Assembly: GCA_020846515.1 (NCBI GenBank)
Contig: JADLDX010000526.1
Coordinates: 1-8,614, forward strand
Direction of reading: 5' to 3'
Length of the DNA stretch: 8,614 bases
From: Pirellulaceae bacterium
Lineage (GTDB): Bacteria > Planctomycetota > Planctomycetia > Pirellulales > Pirellulaceae
A model generated the notes under the pieces. The model searched no databases. It was not told the origin of the DNA and worked only from the letters and a program-made list of their open reading frames with translations. The translations under genes and the position numbers were made by a program. The stretch's first letter is position 1. The number at the start of each line of letters is the position of its first letter. Of the stretch, positions 23 to 6,788 are shown in pieces.

Positions 23-2134
23 ATGCACTTTCGACGGTTGTTCTATTTGCGAGGCGCGAACATCTGGTCGCGTCGTTCGTGCATGGAAGTTTGGGTTGAT
101 CTGGGGGCTCTTAAAGATTTTTCTAGTGAAATGATGCCAGGCTTTAACGAGCGTTACAAAGCCTGGTTGCCGACGGTGGTGGAGCATCGTTGCAGTGTGG
201 GTGAACGCGGCGGTTTTTTTCAACGTCTGGATCGCGGCACTTATCTGGCGCATATTCTGGAACATACGACGTTGGAACTGGAAACCTTGGCTGGCAGCGA
301 AGTGGGCTTTGGCCGTGCCAGAGAGATGAGCGAGGAAGGTGTCTACAAGGTAGCCATTCGCTTTGAAGAAGAAAGCGTGGGAGAAGCCTGCTTGTATGCC
401 GCTCGCGAACTACTCAAGGCTTGCATCTACGATTTGCCATACGATGTGACGGCTGAGGTTGCACGCTTGCGCGATATGGCGGATCGGCGATTGTTGGGCC
501 CTAGTACCAAAGCGATCTTGGCTGCGGCCGCTGAACGGAACATACCGTTTCGCCGGCTAACCATGGGTTCCTTATGTGTGCTGGGACATGGAAACAAACA
601 GCGACGCATTTGGACTGCCGAAACCGATCGCACCGGTGCCATTGCAGAATCGATTGCACAGGACAAGGCGCTCACAAAACGTTTACTGCATTCGATAGGT
701 GTGCCGGTACCCGAAGGCCGTCGCGTCATGGATGCCGAAGATGCCGTCACGGCGGCAGCCGAAATCAATTTGCCTGTCGTCGTCAAACCCTTGGATGGCA
801 ATCATGGTCGAGCGGTCATTCCTAACTTGACCGAGCCCGATGACATTCGGCATGCCTTCGGTTTGGCGTTGGCCGAGGGCAGCGGTGTGATCGTCGAACG
901 ATTTGTGCCAGGCGACGAGCATCGCTTGTTGGTGGTCGGTGATCGTTTGGTGGCCGCGGCTCGTGGTGAACCAATCACTGTCACCGCCGATGGTGTGCAA
1001 AGCGTACAACAACTGATCGAAAACGTGGTGAACAAAGACCCGCGGCGCGGGGAAGATGAGTCGCAACCGCTCAGCCCAGTCGAAATCAATGATGCGCTGC
1101 GGATCGTGCTGACACAGCAGAAGCTGACGCTCGAGAGCATTCCTCAGTCTGGCGCAGAAGTCTTGATCAAGCGTTACGACAATCTATCGATGGATGTCAC
1201 CGACCAGGTGCATCCATCAGTCGCAAACCACGTTGTTCGAGCGGTTCAGATGGTGGGCTTGGATATTGCCGGAGTCGATTTGGTGACTCGCGATATATCG
1301 CAGCCACTAGAAGAACAATTAGGGGCCATCGTCGAAGTGAATGCCGGGCCCGGTCTCTTGATGCACATCAAGCCATCACAGGGACAAGCCCAACCGGTGG
1401 GACCGGCGATTATCGACCACATCTTTTCAGAACCTGGTGACGCGCGCATCCCGGTGATCACCGTGACTGGTTCACATCAGGCTGCGGAGGTGGTCCGCAT
1501 GCTGACGCGCGTATTGATGTCAGCCGGGCATTGCGTGGGTTGGTCTGACGGATTTGGTCTGCATATGAATGACCAGGTACTCGATCGGAAATCGACCAGT
1601 TCGACTGAGCATATGCAGCGCATTTTATTGAATCCGCAATGTACTGCGGCGGTGGTTGCCTTGCAGCCGGAAAGTATCCTGCGCGAAGGTATGGACTTTG
1701 ATCGCGGCGACGTGGCCATCGTCACAGATGTGGACTGGCAGCAGCATTTGGGAGGCGAATTCGATCTTTATGAGCGCGCGAAGGTCTTCAGTGTGTTTCG
1801 ATGTGCAGTGGATGTCATCTTGCCCGGTGGCACGGCTGTGCTCAATGCCGAAGATGAGATGGCTCTAGAGATGAAGCCGCTCAGCCAGGCCGGAGTCATA
1901 CTCTATGGCGCGGACCCTGCTCTGCCAGCGCTGCTCGAGCATCGCGCGGCTGGACAAACCGTCGTCTCATGCATCGATCATCACATCGTTGTGTTTCAAG
2001 GCGACCGCGAGCATCACTTGTTTGACTACCGTCTTTTGGGCGTCTCCTGCCAAACCGCTTTGGCCGTGACAGCCGCGGCATGGCATCTTGAGTGCATTGA
2101 TAAAGTGACCACCACGGAAGTGCCCGCGGATTAA
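23..2134 (+). CDS. CphA2-like shortened cyanophycin synthetase with degenerate Mur-ligase half
   Basis: 703 residues. Cyanophycin synthetases extend a poly-Asp backbone (ATP-grasp half) and attach Arg (Mur-ligase-like half) in the cytoplasm. Residues 1-160 match the CphA N-terminal domain: LRGANIW at 9-15, RGGFFQRL at 62-69, HILEHTTLELETLAG at 77-91, VGFGRARE at 94-101. The ATP-grasp domain (about 161-470) keeps VVVKPLDGNHGRAV (252-265), VERFVPGDEHRLLVVG (291-306) and the metal-binding-type GAIVEVNAGPGLLMHIKPS (434-452). The Mur-like part begins at IPVITVTG (476-483), but the P-loop GTNGKTTT of active enzymes is replaced by GSHQAAEV (483-490). The protein ends at a central-domain helix (TALAVTAAAWHL, 678-689) without a Mur C-terminal domain; full CphA is about 870-900 residues. 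Cyanobacterial CphA2 shows the same losses and polymerises beta-Asp-Arg dipeptides. The frame is open to the left edge, but Met at 23 puts LRG at residues 9-11, as in known CphA. Family call firm; CphA2-type activity inferred. Confidence 0.88.
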   Translation: MHFRRLFYLRGANIWSRRSCMEVWVDLGALKDFSSEMMPGFNERYKAWLPTVVEHRCSVGERGGFFQRLDRGTYLAHILEHTTLELETLAGSEVGFGRAREMSEEGVYKVAIRFEEESVGEACLYAARELLKACIYDLPYDVTAEVARLRDMADRRLLGPSTKAILAAAAERNIPFRRLTMGSLCVLGHGNKQRRIWTAETDRTGAIAESIAQDKALTKRLLHSIGVPVPEGRRVMDAEDAVTAAAEINLPVVVKPLDGNHGRAVIPNLTEPDDIRHAFGLALAEGSGVIVERFVPGDEHRLLVVGDRLVAAARGEPITVTADGVQSVQQLIENVVNKDPRRGEDESQPLSPVEINDALRIVLTQQKLTLESIPQSGAEVLIKRYDNLSMDVTDQVHPSVANHVVRAVQMVGLDIAGVDLVTRDISQPLEEQLGAIVEVNAGPGLLMHIKPSQGQAQPVGPAIIDHIFSEPGDARIPVITVTGSHQAAEVVRMLTRVLMSAGHCVGWSDGFGLHMNDQVLDRKSTSSTEHMQRILLNPQCTAAVVALQPESILREGMDFDRGDVAIVTDVDWQQHLGGEFDLYERAKVFSVFRCAVDVILPGGTAVLNAEDEMALEMKPLSQAGVILYGADPALPALLEHRAAGQTVVSCIDHHIVVFQGDREHHLFDYRLLGVSCQTALAVTAAAWHLECIDKVTTTEVPAD
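2131..2134. other. shared TTAA stop overlap of two convergent genes
   Basis: The four bases TTAA supply the TAA stop of the forward cyanophycin-like gene (2132-2134) and, on the other strand, the TAA stop of xerC (2133-2131). The two genes therefore end inside each other with no intergenic space for a terminator. Confidence 0.95.
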
Positions 2135-3033
2135 CCATTGGCTCGTGGGTGAGCCCGATTGTAAACCTCGCGCAGATTGGCTGTGGACAGGTGAGTATAG
2201 ATCTGGGTGGTGACCAGACTCTTATGGCCGAGTAACTCTTGTACGCTGCGAATATCTGCGCCGCGGTCGAGGAGATGGGTGGCGAAACTATGTCGCAATG
2301 TATGCGGAGTAGTACGCAGGTCCAGTCCAGTAAGCTTCAAGTACTTCTCGAGCATCCGCGCCACGCTGCGTGTGGTCAGACGCGTACCGAAGCGATTGAC
2401 GAATACAGGCGCCTCTCGCCCGGATGGTTCTTTGGGCGAAAGAACGCGTTGGGGGATGTAGGCTCGCAGCGCATCGACCGCGTATCTGCCCAGTGGGCTC
2501 ATGCGTTCCTTGCGCCCTTTGCCGCGAACGCGAGCCACGCCTTCACCGCAATCGATATCTCCATCGTTTAGACCGACCACTTCGCTGACGCGCAGACCCG
2601 CCGAATACATGGTTTCCAAGATTGCTAGATCGCGCAGTCCGAGCGTATCGCGTTTGGGCGGTGCATTGAGCAGCTTCAGTATTTCATCGCTGGTCAAAAA
2701 ATGCGGCAGTTTTCGTTGGCCGCGTGGGTTTCGCAGTGGTTTAGCCGGATTTGTGTCTGTCAGTTCGCGACGCTGTGCAAACTTATAGAAACTACGTAGC
2801 GAGGCGAGCTTGCGCGAAATGCTGGTTCGAGCATAACCGGCCTCGTGGAGGGCCGCGATATATCCCCGCAGGTCGCGAGGGGTAATCTCGGCTGGTGGTT
2901 TATCTCCGCCGAGTTGTTCGATCAGAAAATCAGCCAGATCAAGCAGGTCTTCGCGATACGATTTAATCGTCAGGTCCGACGCATTGCGTTCGGAGTCCAA
3001 GTATCGCAAGAACTGGGTGATCTCACTGCGCAT
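2131..3033 (-). CDS. xerC: tyrosine recombinase XerC
   Basis: 300 residues, the usual Xer length. Xer recombinases resolve chromosome dimers at dif during division. The N-terminal SAM-like core-binding domain spans about residues 1-90 (FLRYLDSERNASDLTIKSY, SISRKLASLRSFYKF). The catalytic domain spans about 110-295. All six catalytic residues are present: R148 in SAGLRVSE, K172 in GKGRKER, H244 and R247 in HTLRHSFATHLL, H270 in LLGHKSL, and nucleophile Y279 in TTQIYTHL. The tail YNRAHPRANG and the string SVQELLGH resemble XerC more than XerD; this is a judgement by eye. The ATG at 3033 is preceded by a GGTGA-like ribosome site (minus strand, about 3040-3044), five to six bases away. Its stop codon overlaps the stop of the convergent cyanophycin gene. 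A REP-like cluster lies immediately upstream. It is likely a chromosomal housekeeping gene, as no integrase-associated element borders are seen around it. Confidence 0.95.
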   Translation of the reverse strand: MRSEITQFLRYLDSERNASDLTIKSYREDLLDLADFLIEQLGGDKPPAEITPRDLRGYIAALHEAGYARTSISRKLASLRSFYKFAQRRELTDTNPAKPLRNPRGQRKLPHFLTSDEILKLLNAPPKRDTLGLRDLAILETMYSAGLRVSEVVGLNDGDIDCGEGVARVRGKGRKERMSPLGRYAVDALRAYIPQRVLSPKEPSGREAPVFVNRFGTRLTTRSVARMLEKYLKLTGLDLRTTPHTLRHSFATHLLDRGADIRSVQELLGHKSLVTTQIYTHLSTANLREVYNRAHPRANG

Positions 3034-3056
3034 AAAAATTCACCAAATGGTTTGCT

Positions 3057-3174
3057 GATCAGCCGCAAGCGCGCTAGCGTTCGGTTTTAGCCTGATTTAA
3101 TGCGGGCTGAAAACCGAGGGCTAGCGCCCTGCGGCTGATTAGCCGCAAGCGCGCTAGCGTCCGGTTTAGCCTGA
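3057..3174. repeat. three REP-like planctomycete palindromic repeats
   Basis: Three copies of an approximately 37-bp unit sit between xerC and the next gene. Copy A (3057-3095, +) reads GATCAGCCGCAAGCGCGC then TAGCGTTCGGTTTTAGCC. Copy B (3101-3140) is the same unit on the other strand, with GCAGGGCGCTAGCCC as its core. Copy C (3137-3174, +) nearly repeats A (AGCCGCAAGCGCGCTAGCG), with one T fewer in the following T-run. A and B form a long imperfect inverted repeat centred near 3098. The element type resembles interspersed repeats I recall from planctomycete genomes. It could form a strong hairpin on transcripts reaching either flanking gene. Confidence 0.85.
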
Positions 3175-3213
3175 CGGTTTAGCCTGACGGTTTAGCCTGA
3201 CGGTTTAGCCTGA
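3162..3213 (+). repeat. four perfect tandem copies of a 13-bp unit
   Basis: CGGTTTAGCCTGA is repeated exactly four times (3162-3174, 3175-3187, 3188-3200, 3201-3213). The first copy is the end of REP-like unit C, so the array looks like slippage expansion of the REP tail. It ends about 30 bp before the stop codon of the small minus-strand gene. Confidence 0.97.
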
Positions 3214-3244
3214 CTAAAGACCGACGCCTTACTGTCGTAGTAAT

Positions 3245-3559
3245 CTACTGTGGTAGTGTAAAGCGAGGAGTCACCATTCGTTCTGGTTTTGCGCCAGCTG
3301 GAACTCCCGAGGTCTGCGTGCCCATTGACGGCAAGTTTGGCAATGGGGTGGCAGTCAATTGACCTGCATCGACAGCGGCGGCCGTCTCGCGGATCTTCTT
3401 GCTCAGCACCGCGGCATCGTACCAACTGAAGCTCAGTTGCGGATCGGCAGCGTACCGCCCAAGCATCCGCAGAGTCTCGACGCGTCGTTCATCATCGTAC
3501 AAAAATATGTAGCGCTCTTCGCCCTTGACCATAGCCAGGACGTTGATTTCTTTGCTCAT
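3245..3559 (-). CDS. conserved-looking small protein of unknown function (planctomycete type)
   Basis: 104 residues, starting MSKEINVLAMVKGEERYIF. I do not know a function. The first 60 residues are compact and mixed alpha/beta in character (FLYDDERRVETLRMLGRYAA, SFSWYDAAVLSKKIRE). The last 45 are rich in Pro, Gly and Thr and probably disordered. There is no signal peptide, membrane segment or cysteine. I place the start at 3559 rather than at the upstream in-frame ATG at 3586 because a strong ribosome site, GGGAGGGA, lies about seven bases before it (minus strand, about 3567-3574). The style of the N-terminal half resembles short hypothetical proteins I recall from planctomycetes, but this was not checked. 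It lies between xerC and a lipoprotein gene on the same strand, with about 210 bp and 295 bp gaps, so an operon is doubtful. Confidence 0.75.
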   Translation of the reverse strand: MSKEINVLAMVKGEERYIFLYDDERRVETLRMLGRYAADPQLSFSWYDAAVLSKKIRETAAAVDAGQLTATPLPNLPSMGTQTSGVPAGAKPERMVTPRFTLPQ

Positions 3560-3645
3560 GCTGACATCCCTCCCTGGAGCATGCACTTGCTAATCCAATT
3601 ACCGCTTAACTGCTCCTCATGCGCTCGATCAAGTGGGTCGCGCAT
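3556..3645 (-). CDS. possible 29-codon ORF overlapping the small gene's start
   Basis: On the minus strand an ATG at 3645 opens 29 codons (MRDPLDRAHEEQLSGNWISK followed by CMLQGGMSA). The TGA stop at 3558-3556 overlaps the ATG of the 104-residue protein as ATGA. The frame stays open for 16 further codons upstream, back to a TGA beginning at 3696. The overlap is typical of translational coupling, and the ribosome site of the downstream gene lies inside this ORF. The peptide is hydrophilic at first and has one Cys and one Trp. No clear ribosome site precedes its own ATG. It could be a leader peptide, a tiny coupled protein, or chance; an ORF of this length is not rare. Confidence 0.3.
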   Translation of the reverse strand: MRDPLDRAHEEQLSGNWISKCMLQGGMSA

Positions 3646-3685
3646 CAGGTGAAGTTGAAGAGTAGTTGGTATGGCTCTGATAGTT

Positions 3686-3699
3686 GCTTGAATTCAAGC
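3686..3699. promoter_or_regulatory. 14-bp perfect palindrome, operator-like
   Basis: GCTTGAATTCAAGC is a perfect palindrome about 130 bp upstream of the 104-residue gene and 40 bp upstream of the 29-codon ORF (minus-strand direction). It could be a binding site for a dimeric regulator. No convincing -35/-10 pair was found beside it. The surrounding stretch 3646-3816 holds nothing else I can name. Confidence 0.3.
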
Positions 3700-3816
3700 T
3701 GAACTGTAGGACGGATGACGGACAAACGTGCCAGGTAAACTGTGTGTGTAACAGCAGTTGACACGGGGTGTTCCGGTAACGTCCAGCGGTTCTGCCTTTA
3801 ACGCCTTATGATGTCA

Positions 3817-3843
3817 AAAACCCAAGCAAAACAAGGGTTTTGC
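3817..3843 (-). terminator. hairpin after the lipoprotein gene, possible terminator
   Basis: AAAACCC (3817-3823) pairs with GGGTTTT (3835-3841). On the minus strand the stem is followed by a run of five T, starting about 13 bp after the lipoprotein stop codon. The stem has only three G-C pairs, so termination would be weak. A competing hairpin shares the bases: GCAAAAC (3826-3832) with GTTTTGC (3837-3843) around a four-base loop. Confidence 0.45.
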
Positions 3844-3854
3844 CTCTCAAGGCA

Positions 3855-5021
3855 TTACCGCTGGTATCGGTCCAAAGGCCATCGAAAGATCAAGCGGCTT
3901 TCTTCTTCGCCACCGCGACAAGCGAGCGTTTCGGTCACATGAAAATGACAACAGACTCTTATAAAGTCTTCGCTACGTTGAAGATACGCTTGCCAGCCCC
4001 CGAAGCGTACGTCGTCTCGGAAATAAAAGTAGTCCGAAACACGTCGCGTAAAATCTTCGTCATGACCGTTATAGTTACGCATGTGGGCGATGATCGGCTC
4101 GTGCTGAGGCACCAATGGAGGCCGCATGGCCGTAGGTGTTGCTGGAATAAATCCGCGGGGATCTGGCCAGTCTGTCGGTAGAGTCTCTGTTAGCGGATCA
4201 TCGAGAATGCTCAGCGCACTTGAACCAACCGCGCCATTGGTACCGTCTGCGGCTGCGATCTGTTGGTCCCCTTCGACGGCTGAAGCTGGCGCGACCAGTT
4301 CCCCGTCGGACTGATCTTCTGGCATCAGAGCGGGAGGCGGAACTACGGGAGGGGACTGTGGCGCTTCGACCGGCAAAGTTACCGCAGTCAGTTCAGGCGT
4401 CTGCGATTTGAGCTGCTCGGTCGCCAAGGCGCGCTGGGCTTCGTGATGCACCCAACGCGGAATCTTCTTTTCATCTTTCGTGCCCCAGGGCATACCGTAT
4501 CCAGGCAACACGGGATGGAAGCCAGGATTGGCGGCGTACCAGTTGACCTTCATGCTCATGCGCGGCGGGTAATAGGGCGAATAGTCGATTACCGAGCCCA
4601 ACAGGACCGCATCAACTCCTAAGTCGCGTGCCAGCGCTTGAAAGTCTTCACCTTTGGATAGTGGTTGGCTGTATTCTTCAAGCCGAGCCTTCACGACGCC
4701 CATGGGTAGAACTTCGAAGCCCGGGATAGCTTGCAATTCGTTGATGTATGCGAGCGTTACTCGTTCGGCGGAAAGCGTAGCTTCTTCACTCTGGTTGACA
4801 AACGGGAGAACCGCCACGGTGCGTAGTTGTGGGAAGGGGTTGTTGTATTGCGGTTTGTGGCGGATGTCGGGCATCAATGAGCAACCACTGCTGCACGCCC
4901 AGCAGATCGCAATAGCTAGCAGTATAGAGATCCAGCCGATCGAACGCGTGGATCGTTGATCGCTTTTGTGCCGCTGCCGGCTGTGGATGGAGGTTGGGTC
5001 AGGTGTGATGGACACGGCCAA
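3855..5021 (-). CDS. lipoprotein with TolB/CsgG-like N-terminal domain
   Basis: 388 residues. The N-terminus is basic (residues 14-27), followed by a hydrophobic stretch WISILLAIAICWA (30-42) and a lipobox SSGC with the modified Cys at 47, so it is a predicted lipoprotein. Residues 65-150 (LRTVAVLPFVNQSEE, AERVTLAYINELQAIPGFEV, ALARDLGVDAVLLGSVIDY) have the pattern of the TolB-N/CsgG/LpoB-like fold in periplasmic lipoproteins. Residues 205-310 are Pro/Ala-rich linker. The tail at 310-388 (MRNYNGHDEDFTRRVSDYFY, GGWQAYLQRSEDF) looks structured but is unknown to me. There is no ATG before the lipobox. The only usable starts are TTG at 5021 or GTG at 5015, with an in-frame stop ten codons upstream of the TTG and no strong ribosome site. 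The role is probably envelope-associated; the exact function cannot be assigned. Confidence 0.85.
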   Translation of the reverse strand: MAVSITPDPTSIHSRQRHKSDQRSTRSIGWISILLAIAICWACSSGCSLMPDIRHKPQYNNPFPQLRTVAVLPFVNQSEEATLSAERVTLAYINELQAIPGFEVLPMGVVKARLEEYSQPLSKGEDFQALARDLGVDAVLLGSVIDYSPYYPPRMSMKVNWYAANPGFHPVLPGYGMPWGTKDEKKIPRWVHHEAQRALATEQLKSQTPELTAVTLPVEAPQSPPVVPPPALMPEDQSDGELVAPASAVEGDQQIAAADGTNGAVGSSALSILDDPLTETLPTDWPDPRGFIPATPTAMRPPLVPQHEPIIAHMRNYNGHDEDFTRRVSDYFYFRDDVRFGGWQAYLQRSEDFIRVCCHFHVTETLACRGGEEESRLIFRWPLDRYQR

Positions 5022-5162: not shown

Positions 5163-5184
5163 AAAAGGGGTCAGGTCTATTTTC
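5163..5184 (+). repeat. left 22-bp inverted repeat
   Basis: This is identical to the reverse complement of 5950-5971. It carries GGGGTCAGG, a head similar to the internal GGGGACACAGG boxes. Confidence 0.95.
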
Positions 5185-5405
5185 TGCGGACTGATAAGAG
5201 ACCCGAAATGCGAGAGGCGTCTCGGGGCACAGGCAATCGTGCTCTGACGCAATGCTTGCATTGTCAAGGCGCGGGGGTTGTTACCGGGACATAGGCAATA
5301 ATGGTCGGCTCGGCGGGTGCACTTCTAGTTGAAATGCCAGCATTAGACGAAGGACACGGGGACAGCCACATCAGTGGACGACAGCGCATCGGAGTCAGGA
5401 GTCAT

Positions 5406-5435
5406 GGGGACACAGGCAATCCACGATTGCTAGCA
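5406..5435 (+). repeat. best-formed internal REP-like unit
   Basis: GGGGACACAG (5406-5415) is followed directly by the perfect hairpin GCAATC-CAC-GATTGC (5416-5430), and this runs into the core TTGCTAGCA. It is the clearest example of the head-plus-stem unit in the cassette. Confidence 0.75.
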
Positions 5436-5447
5436 CAACACCACACT

Positions 5448-5898
5448 GTCTGTGTTCCCGGGCCTCTGCACGATTGCTAGCACTACATCACAACGTCTGT
5501 GTCCCCGCTGCGATTCTTGTGCTAGCAATACACGATTGCGTGTGTCCCCGGCGGGGCCAAGAGTTTTCGCGTATTCGTGGCAAAGTCACTGCGTAATCAG
5601 GATAATGCTAGCATCGCATCATCCGGTCTCGTGGGTAGTTGCTAGCAAAAATGCGATGCCTGTGTCCCCGGGCGCGGTGTCCCCGGGCGTGCATTGACGG
5701 GCAACCACCGGGCCGAACACATGCTTGCTTTGCCATTGGCGAGTTTCCGGTTGGTTGGCACCTATAAAGTCGCTGGGTACTCTTGCTCGCCGGAGCAGAC
5801 CGACGATTCAATGCCAGCATTATCGAGCATTGCGTGTGTCCCCGGAAGGCGAACTACGGGCTATTGCTAGCAGAGGCGAGCATTGCCTGTGTCCCCGG
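5448..5898 (-). repeat. left-pointing REP-like units in the cassette
   Basis: CTGTGTTCCC or (C/G)TGTGTCCCC heads occur at 5448-5459, 5495-5506, 5535-5551, 5655-5671 (with an extra GGTGTCCCCGGG at 5677-5688), 5828-5845 and 5881-5898. Several have pairing arms just upstream: GCATCGCAT (5611-5619) with ATGCGATGC (5651-5659), GCAAT with ATTGC at 5525-5539, and CAATGC (5809-5814) with GCATTG (5827-5832). GCTAGC cores lie at 5476, 5521, 5607, 5641 and 5866. Confidence 0.7.
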
Positions 5899-5949
5899 TG
5901 GTTTCGTCTTGTCCACGAGTGGACGCCATAAGGAATGCCAACCAAAACG

Positions 5950-5971
5950 GAAAATAGACCTGACCCCTTTT
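5950..5971 (-). repeat. right 22-bp inverted repeat
   Basis: Reverse complement of 5163-5184 without mismatch. Beyond the 22 bp the flanks diverge (TCTCGCGAGA on the left, CCGGCATCGG on the right). Confidence 0.95.
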
Positions 5972-6431: not shown

Positions 6432-6788
6432 ATGAACAGACGAGACGCAATGCGGAAGTTCAAAGCTGAGATCTTTCAAGCTCTCGCTCACCCCACTCGG
6501 ATTTTTATTGTGCAGTCACTCGCGCAAGGAGAGATGACGGCCGGAAAGATAAGCGAAGTTGTCGGAATCACGCAGTCAAATGCTTCGCAACATTTGGCGA
6601 TCCTTCGCAACAAGCACGTCGTCGAAACGAGAAAAGATGGGAATTCAATCTACTATCGCCTGCGCGATCCGTTGTTCGGCGAAATGCTCGACAAAATGCG
6701 TCAGTACGTTGTGGCTCAAGCGATGGTCGCTATGAATCACGTGGCCGAGGATCAGGACGCTAACGCATCAGTCGATAACGTTGAATGA
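6432..6788 (+). CDS. ArsR-family winged-helix transcriptional regulator
   Basis: 118 residues. The ArsR/SmtB DNA-binding domain spans about 8-85: FQALAHPTRIFIVQSLAQGE (helices 1-2), GKISEVVGITQSNASQHLAI (helix-turn-helix, recognition helix around SNASQHLAIL), then the wing ETRKDGNSIYYRLRDP. Such proteins are dimeric repressors released by metals, thiols or other signals. This one contains no cysteine, so the classical ELCVCDL arsenic site and the two-Cys sulfide/persulfide switches (BigR/SqrR type) are absent. Its signal is unknown. The likely control is autorepression through the palindrome at 6380-6399. Its stop overlaps the next gene (ATGA), suggesting an operon with the 112-residue protein. 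A second Met at 6450 could also start it; I prefer 6432 because of the GGAG upstream. Family call firm, ligand unknown. Confidence 0.92.
   Translation: MNRRDAMRKFKAEIFQALAHPTRIFIVQSLAQGEMTAGKISEVVGITQSNASQHLAILRNKHVVETRKDGNSIYYRLRDPLFGEMLDKMRQYVVAQAMVAMNHVAEDQDANASVDNVE

What the first reader, a model, noticed from the sequence alone, without database searches (positions are those of the whole stretch)
5163..5971. TIR-bounded non-coding cassette packed with opposed REP-like hairpins
Perfect 22-bp inverted repeats enclose about ten copies of a GGGGACAC head plus stem, oriented toward a switch point near 5440, and six GCTAGC palindromic cores in about 440 bp. There is no protein. Both the ends and the internal units begin with GGGG and a CAGG, as if one transposase could recognise all of them. 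This may be an undescribed composite, non-autonomous RAYT-mobilised element, or a REP-dense structural or protein-binding platform.
Basis: partly seen in the sequence, partly recalled or inferred. Interest (0 to 1): 0.78.

Follow-up and report, generated by a model that had tools for sequence, protein, structure and literature searches.

The report
Pile-up of two GGGG-headed repeat families
This non-coding stretch is a pile-up of two families of short mirror-image repeats that recur in many other places in the same bacterial genome and were probably copied by small transposases; its matching ends, which looked like the ends of one mobile cassette, are most likely two separate repeat copies, so it is a modest new example of a known kind of element.

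Summary
The reported features are real: perfect 22-bp inverted ends, about ten GGGGACAC heads, six GCTAGC cores. The single-cassette reading is not supported. The ends belong to repeat family A (AAAAGGGGTCAGGTCTATTTTC; 80 exact 13-mer heads in the genome, 49 of 107 listed heads in inverted pairs of 39-95 bp). The right end alone matches 61 of 72 positions of an ordinary A dimer. The interior is a different family, B: 52-55-bp units GGGGACACA-hairpin-TGCTAGCA-hairpin-TGTGTCCCC, at least 64 in the genome, 58 within 1 kb of another. None of 21 other B-array loci has A on both sides. Neither family was found in 14 congeners. Both heads fit GGGGWSAS, published for inverted repeats flanking TIRYT tyrosine transposases; A-type ends bracket such genes in a Deltaproteobacterial MAG and a congener. 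No gene bracketed by A or B heads was found in this 81%-complete MAG. Best reading: a REP-like island of non-autonomous elements, likely copied by Y1 transposases, with B re-inserting near itself. New families, known kind. B's unusual points are its islands, its predicted three-way-junction fold (no covariation support) and its unequal heads.

The parts
5163..5184 (+). Left 22-bp end: a family A head (AAAAGGGGTCAGGTCTATTTTC). A-dimer profile match extends weakly to about 5211.
   Evidence: E 5.2e-5; lost when the head is masked
5907..5971 (-). Right end: family A dimer, positions 1-61 of 72, outer head intact (5950-5971), inner head decayed
   Evidence: E 1.5e-11; 0.0065 with heads masked
5406..5459 (+). 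The one complete family B unit (54 bp): outer 9-bp arms, two inner hairpins, TGCTAGCA between them
   Evidence: 64.6 bits
5223..5232 (+). B-like head, 2 mismatches, in a decayed half-unit
5285..5294 (+). B-like head, 2 mismatches, in a decayed half-unit
5475..5506 (-). B half-unit (head end at 5506); 5469-5507 is 87% like 5422-5460
5518..5549 (-). B half-unit (head end at 5549)
5640..5669 (-). B half-unit (head end at 5669), followed by a bare head at 5675-5684
5812..5843 (-). B half-unit (head end at 5843)
5865..5896 (-). B half-unit (head end at 5896)

Best explanation
The 5163-5971 segment is an intergenic pile-up of two different families of GGGG-headed inverted-repeat elements, and its 22-bp ends most likely are two separate family A copies rather than the ends of one mobile cassette. 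Family A (GGGGTCAGGTCTA heads; dimers mostly of 71-73 or 39-50 bp) and family B (GGGGACACA heads; 52-55-bp units with two small predicted hairpins around TGCTAGCA) are REPIN-like and carry no gene. Inferred: each was copied by a Y1 (HUH) tyrosine transposase of the TIRYT kind, which would cut single-stranded DNA at the head beside a hairpin. Inferred: B copies re-insert or duplicate close to existing B copies, which builds islands, and partial loss leaves half-units. Shown: both repeat families, their copy numbers, the B islands, and A-type ends bracketing Y1 transposase genes in other genomes. Not shown: any movement, or the enzyme for B.
For: A: 80 exact heads against 1 for the reversed control; 18 distinct dimers of 60 bp or more, 13 of them 71-73 bp; all 9 neighbouring exact-head pairs within 100 bp face inward; the right end matches 61 of 72 dimer positions. 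A-type ends bracket a Y1_Tnp gene in L198 (Deltaproteobacteria MAG) and in congener G011. Of 87 Y1_Tnp loci, 7 have inward GGGG[AT][CG]A[CG] heads on both sides and 18 on one; the same loci read backwards give 0 and 11. B: 46 exact heads against 0; 64 places, 58 within 1 kb of another, against a mean of 1.3 (max 10) for random placement on the genome and 9.6 (max 20) on an assumed 12% of it. Units of one island are more alike than units of different islands (0.807 over 52 pairs, 0.774 over 1223; 0 of 1000 label shuffles). None of 21 other B loci has A on both sides. Published frame: PMC3733652 section 16, PMC6006769 passages.
Against: No gene bracketed by A or B heads in this genome; its two Y1_Tnp genes lack them, although an A pair lies on one side of the C184 gene, and two TIRYT proteins find no match in it. 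None of the 7 bracketed genes has GGGGACAC heads on both sides, so B's link to a transposase rests on the motif alone. The predicted B fold has no covariation beyond shuffles. In 62 of 87 Y1_Tnp loci no such head was found. Both outer A heads of the segment are intact and both inner ones decayed, which a composite would also give.
Confidence: 0.72

Rival explanations
1. One reading: one non-autonomous cassette, moved by an A-type transposase acting on the outer 22-bp ends and carrying the B units as cargo.
For: Perfect facing outer ends. The span between the outer GGGG heads, 801 bp, is near that of the bracketed transposase genes: 754 bp in G011 and about 930 bp in L198. Outer heads intact, inner ones decayed. 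Other A-bounded segments of 116-343 bp exist.
Against: No second copy of the segment. None of 21 other B loci has A on both sides. Beyond 100 bp, neighbouring exact A heads face inward in 6 of 12 cases, with 4 tandem and 2 outward, and some of the inward ones are outer heads of separate dimers. No remnant of a transposase gene inside.
Confidence: 0.15
2. A structural, protein-binding or RNA platform: the B units are kept for a host function, not as mobile repeats.
For: In 28 aligned units the outer stem is almost invariant (98.4% of cells paired) and the TGCTAGCA core is conserved. Three of three B units tested fold better than shuffles as ssDNA, z -2.9, -4.9 and -5.3.
Against: No Rfam match, no covariation, no match in 14 congeners by pattern or model, and half of the islands' copies in the window are decayed half-units. 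Conserved heads are also expected of a mobile element.
Confidence: 0.08
3. A single A dimer split at its centre by insertion of the B island.
For: Joining 39 bp of the right end to 33 bp of the left end gives a 72-mer that aligns without gaps to most A dimers.
Against: The right end alone matches dimer positions 1-61, past the centre; the best split score lies at position 54, not at the centre; the left arm is weak (184 of 5000 random stretches score as well).
Confidence: 0.05

Closest known systems
TIR repeats of TIRtrons / TIRYT (TIR-associated tyrosine transposase), PMC3733652 (section 16 read; passages)
   Same: GGGGWSAS head fits A (GGGGTCAG) and B (GGGGACAC); repeats occur as dimers and clusters; A-type ends bracket Y1_Tnp genes in L198 and G011.
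   Different: No such gene found for A or B in this genome. B's 54-bp unit with two inner hairpins, TGCTAGCA centre and unequal heads is not described in the section read; its figure was not seen.
TnpA-REP subclass 2.1, PMC6006769 (passages only)
   Same: That paper says 20 of 26 described TIRYTs fall in subclass 2.1 and cites the GGGG[AT][CG]A[CG] consensus.
   Different: I did not classify the L198 or G011 proteins into these subclasses.
REPINs, PMC3116915 (passages only)
   Same: Two inverted short repeats forming a hairpin; singlets, doublets and clusters; no gene of their own.
   Different: Head is GGGG, not GTAG/GTGG (tetranucleotide of other REPs from PMC6006769 passages). Ordered SBW25 clusters are tandem repeats including flanks; B flanks are shared in only 1 of 49 within-island pairs.
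BIMEs (passages in PMC6006769 and PMC3733652)
   Same: Mosaic clusters of inverted REPs between genes.
   Different: B arrays mix complete units and half-units with unlike spacers.

Membership tests
TIRYT-associated TIR repeats (family A) | GGGGWSAS motif in the repeat | tested here: met
   GGGGTCAG head, 80 exact 13-mers
TIRYT-associated TIR repeats (family A) | same ends flank a Y1 tyrosine transposase gene | tested here: met
   L198: near-identical ends round a Y1_Tnp gene; G011: GGGGTCAGGCCTC ends round one. Met in other genomes only; none found in this MAG
TIRYT-associated TIR repeats (family A) | repeats arranged as dimers | tested here: met
   49 of 107 listed heads have a facing partner within 95 bp
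TIRYT-associated TIR repeats (family B) | GGGGWSAS motif in the repeat | tested here: met
   GGGGACAC head, 46 exact 13-mers
TIRYT-associated TIR repeats (family B) | same ends flank a Y1 tyrosine transposase gene | tested here: inconclusive
   0 of 87 Y1_Tnp loci have GGGGACAC heads on both sides (read from its rows); own genome incomplete
TIRYT-associated TIR repeats (family B) | repeats arranged as dimers or clusters | tested here: met
   58 of 64 units within 1 kb of another
Canonical GTAG REP / REPIN | GT[AG]G tetranucleotide at the foot of the hairpin | tested here: not met
   heads are GGGG
Canonical GTAG REP / REPIN | two inverted repeats that can form a hairpin | tested here: met
   predicted ssDNA folds of three B units and one A dimer; covariation not above shuffles for B
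Composite TIR-bounded mobile cassette | recurs as a unit with the same ends | tested here: not met
   no second copy; 0 of 21 other B loci have A on both sides
Composite TIR-bounded mobile cassette | empty site in a relative | tested here: inconclusive
   congener loci keep the lipoprotein-like side but show no match to the ArsR side

The most novel reading that the evidence does not exclude
Family B is a self-clustering single-strand element: a 54-bp three-way-junction DNA with unequal heads (one GGGGACACAG, one GGGGACACAC) that uses existing copies as landing sites, so that islands grow by local insertion instead of tandem duplication, driven by a TIRYT not yet seen.
Probability: 0.22. Interest if true: 0.55.

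Novelty: new member of a known kind. Interest (0 to 1): 0.36.

Why it matters
It adds two repeat families to a little-described group (the word TIRYT occurs in 2 papers of the library searched) and ties the A head to Y1_Tnp genes in other genomes. B offers a test case for local re-insertion of REP-like elements: 58 of 64 copies lie within 1 kb of another, and 10 of 22 contigs that carry B have it within 300 bp of a contig end, so such islands may also break assemblies.

Tried and rejected
Split A dimer: looked good by eye and by MAFFT; disfavoured after the profile tests.

Decayed transposase gene inside the segment: tblastn E 0.008 to one TIRYT. Rejected: with a 38-sequence profile the best real frame scores -0.1 bits, and at least 15 of 1200 shuffled frames score higher.

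Structured RNA: no Rfam hit; no covariation.

Empty site: congener proteins at the neighbouring locus are 52-60% identical and the loci held show no ArsR-side match, so the site cannot be compared base by base.

Spread of B: 0 of 59 relatives by exact pattern; 0 stretches in the GTDB r220 contigs by exact pattern (the tool says the own genome may be left out); 0 of 14 congeners by model R1 (with only 150 of 849-2780 first-look candidates scored per genome). Spread of A: 0 of 14 congeners by exact 17-mer; 4 stretches in GTDB r220 by exact 20-mer.

Papers: 'GGGGTCAGG' with 'transposase' gave 7 papers, none on bacterial repeats by title; 'GGGGACAC' with 'palindromic' gave 15, of which 10 were listed, none on bacterial repeats by title; REPIN with RAYT gave 18; REP-associated tyrosine transposase with Planctomycetes gave 2. 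That B or A is not in print means only: not in those searches.

Full report
Setting. The window is contig 526 of a 6.48-Mb genome in 1089 contigs, 80.8% complete. No call names the organism. The segment lies between divergent genes: a 388-aa protein at 3855-5021 (-) with no Pfam family, lipoprotein-like by eye, and an ArsR-family regulator at 6432-6788 (+).

Observation. Only one unit, 5406-5459, is a complete strong match; the rest are single heads or half-units. The orientation switch at about 5440 is the centre of that unit, with + heads to its left and - heads to its right. Other arrays are mixed.

Family A, the ends. GGGGTCAGGTCTA occurs 80 times exactly in the genome against 1 for the reversed control. 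In the loci held, 107 head contexts with at most one mismatch were listed, a few of them looking like chance matches in coding repeats. 96 of 107 are preceded by AAAA and 49 of 107 have a facing partner within 95 bp. 35 distinct exact copies of the 22-mer are held, so a perfect 22-bp inverted repeat is what two ordinary copies give. Of 18 distinct dimers of at least 60 bp, 13 are 71-73 bp; dimers of 39-50 bp are. An A-dimer profile matches the right end of the segment over positions 1-61 of 72 (E 1.5e-11; 0.0065 with heads masked) and the left end more weakly (E 5.2e-5, lost when masked). I first took the two ends for halves of one dimer; speak against that.

Family A and transposases. The 20-mer AAGGGGTCAGGTCTATTTTC occurs in 4 stretches of the GTDB r220 contigs. 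In L198 it starts 49 bp upstream of a Y1_Tnp ORF (1505-2377; Pfam E 1.3e-12) with a facing end of one changed head base at 2387. In congener G011, GGGGTCAGGCCTC ends bracket a 239-aa Y1_Tnp ORF. In G004 one such end precedes a relative, and a facing end with a shortened head follows it. Over 87 Y1_Tnp loci from three searches, 7 have inward GGGG[AT][CG]A[CG] heads on both sides, 18 on one and 62 on none; the same loci read backwards give 0, 11 and 76. This is the TIRtron arrangement of PMC3733652 (section 16 read), which PMC6006769 links to its subclass 2.1 (passages).

Family B, the interior. GGGGACACAGGCA occurs 46 times exactly against 0. In 20 loci, 49 of 56 facing head pairs within 75 bp are 52-55 bp long. 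Of 50 oriented units 28 have 54 nt; these were aligned, and the outer arms and the TGCTAGCA core are nearly invariant. Predicted ssDNA folds of three units show an outer stem and two inner hairpins. The structure shows no covariation beyond shuffles. Heads tend to be unlike: of 47 units with G or C at head position 10 on both sides, 34 pair a G head with a C head and 13 do not (Fisher 0.0008, on related units).

B islands. A covariance model gave 107 match rows, many of them the two strands of one place; I collapsed them by hand to 64 places on 22 contigs, 58 with another within 1 kb. Units within an island are more alike than between islands (0.807 over 52 pairs, 0.774 over 1223; 0 of 1000 label shuffles), but 30-bp flanks are rarely shared (1 of 49 pairs against 0 of 1127 at 75%). 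Mean flank identity is slightly higher within islands (0.533 against 0.478, 0 of 1000 shuffles). This fits repeated local insertion better than recent tandem duplication with flanks, though old duplication is not excluded. In the window 5422-5460 and 5469-5507 are 87% alike, so local duplication happens too.

Composite or not. Of 21 other B-array loci none has A on both sides and 2 have one A head. No second copy of the segment was found. A and B differ in the bases before the GGGG (C at the first position out in 77 of 101 for B). By eye, some other A-bounded segments hold a third repeat family (AGCCGC...GGGCGTTAGCC) inside, so repeats between A heads are not special to this site. The composite stays possible at about 0.15, because both outer heads are intact and both inner ones decayed.

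Spread. Neither family was found in 14 congeners (A by exact 17-mer; B by pattern and model), B not in 59 relatives nor by exact pattern in the GTDB r220 contigs. The own genome has two Y1_Tnp genes, neither bracketed by A or B heads, and no match to two TIRYT proteins.

Verdict. The features are real, the cassette is not supported, the kind is known. The families are new within the searches made, and B's islands and unequal heads are the part worth a specialist's look.

Noticed in passing
window 3054-3230: Another repeat cluster: AGCCGC(A)AG..GCGCTAGCG / CGCTAGC..GCGGCTGAT inverted copies followed by four short tandem copies of about 16 bp (GGTTTAGCCTGAC). Similar sequence lies inside some A-bounded segments (L049, L115; by eye).
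   Followed up: no
L023 (G000:C184) 1060-2100: The Y1_Tnp gene at 1186-1740 lies among GGCCGGAACAAGCG..GTTCCGGC palindromes, a third REP type that looks like classical REPs by eye; an A pair lies on one side of it at 795-1035.
   Followed up: partly
L252, heads at 930-1089 and 2220: A Y1_Tnp gene with five same-strand GGGGTCAGG heads on one side and one facing head on the other: a head cluster beside its likely transposase.
   Followed up: no
G000 contigs C164 (end) and C694 (start): The B unit at C164:6031-6082 equals that at C694:64-115, so the two contigs may overlap; 10 of 22 B contigs have B within 300 bp of an end.
   Followed up: partly
window 2131-5021: Order Xer-type recombinase, small conserved ORF, lipoprotein-like gene is kept in most of the congener loci held, while the ArsR side was not matched.
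   Followed up: partly
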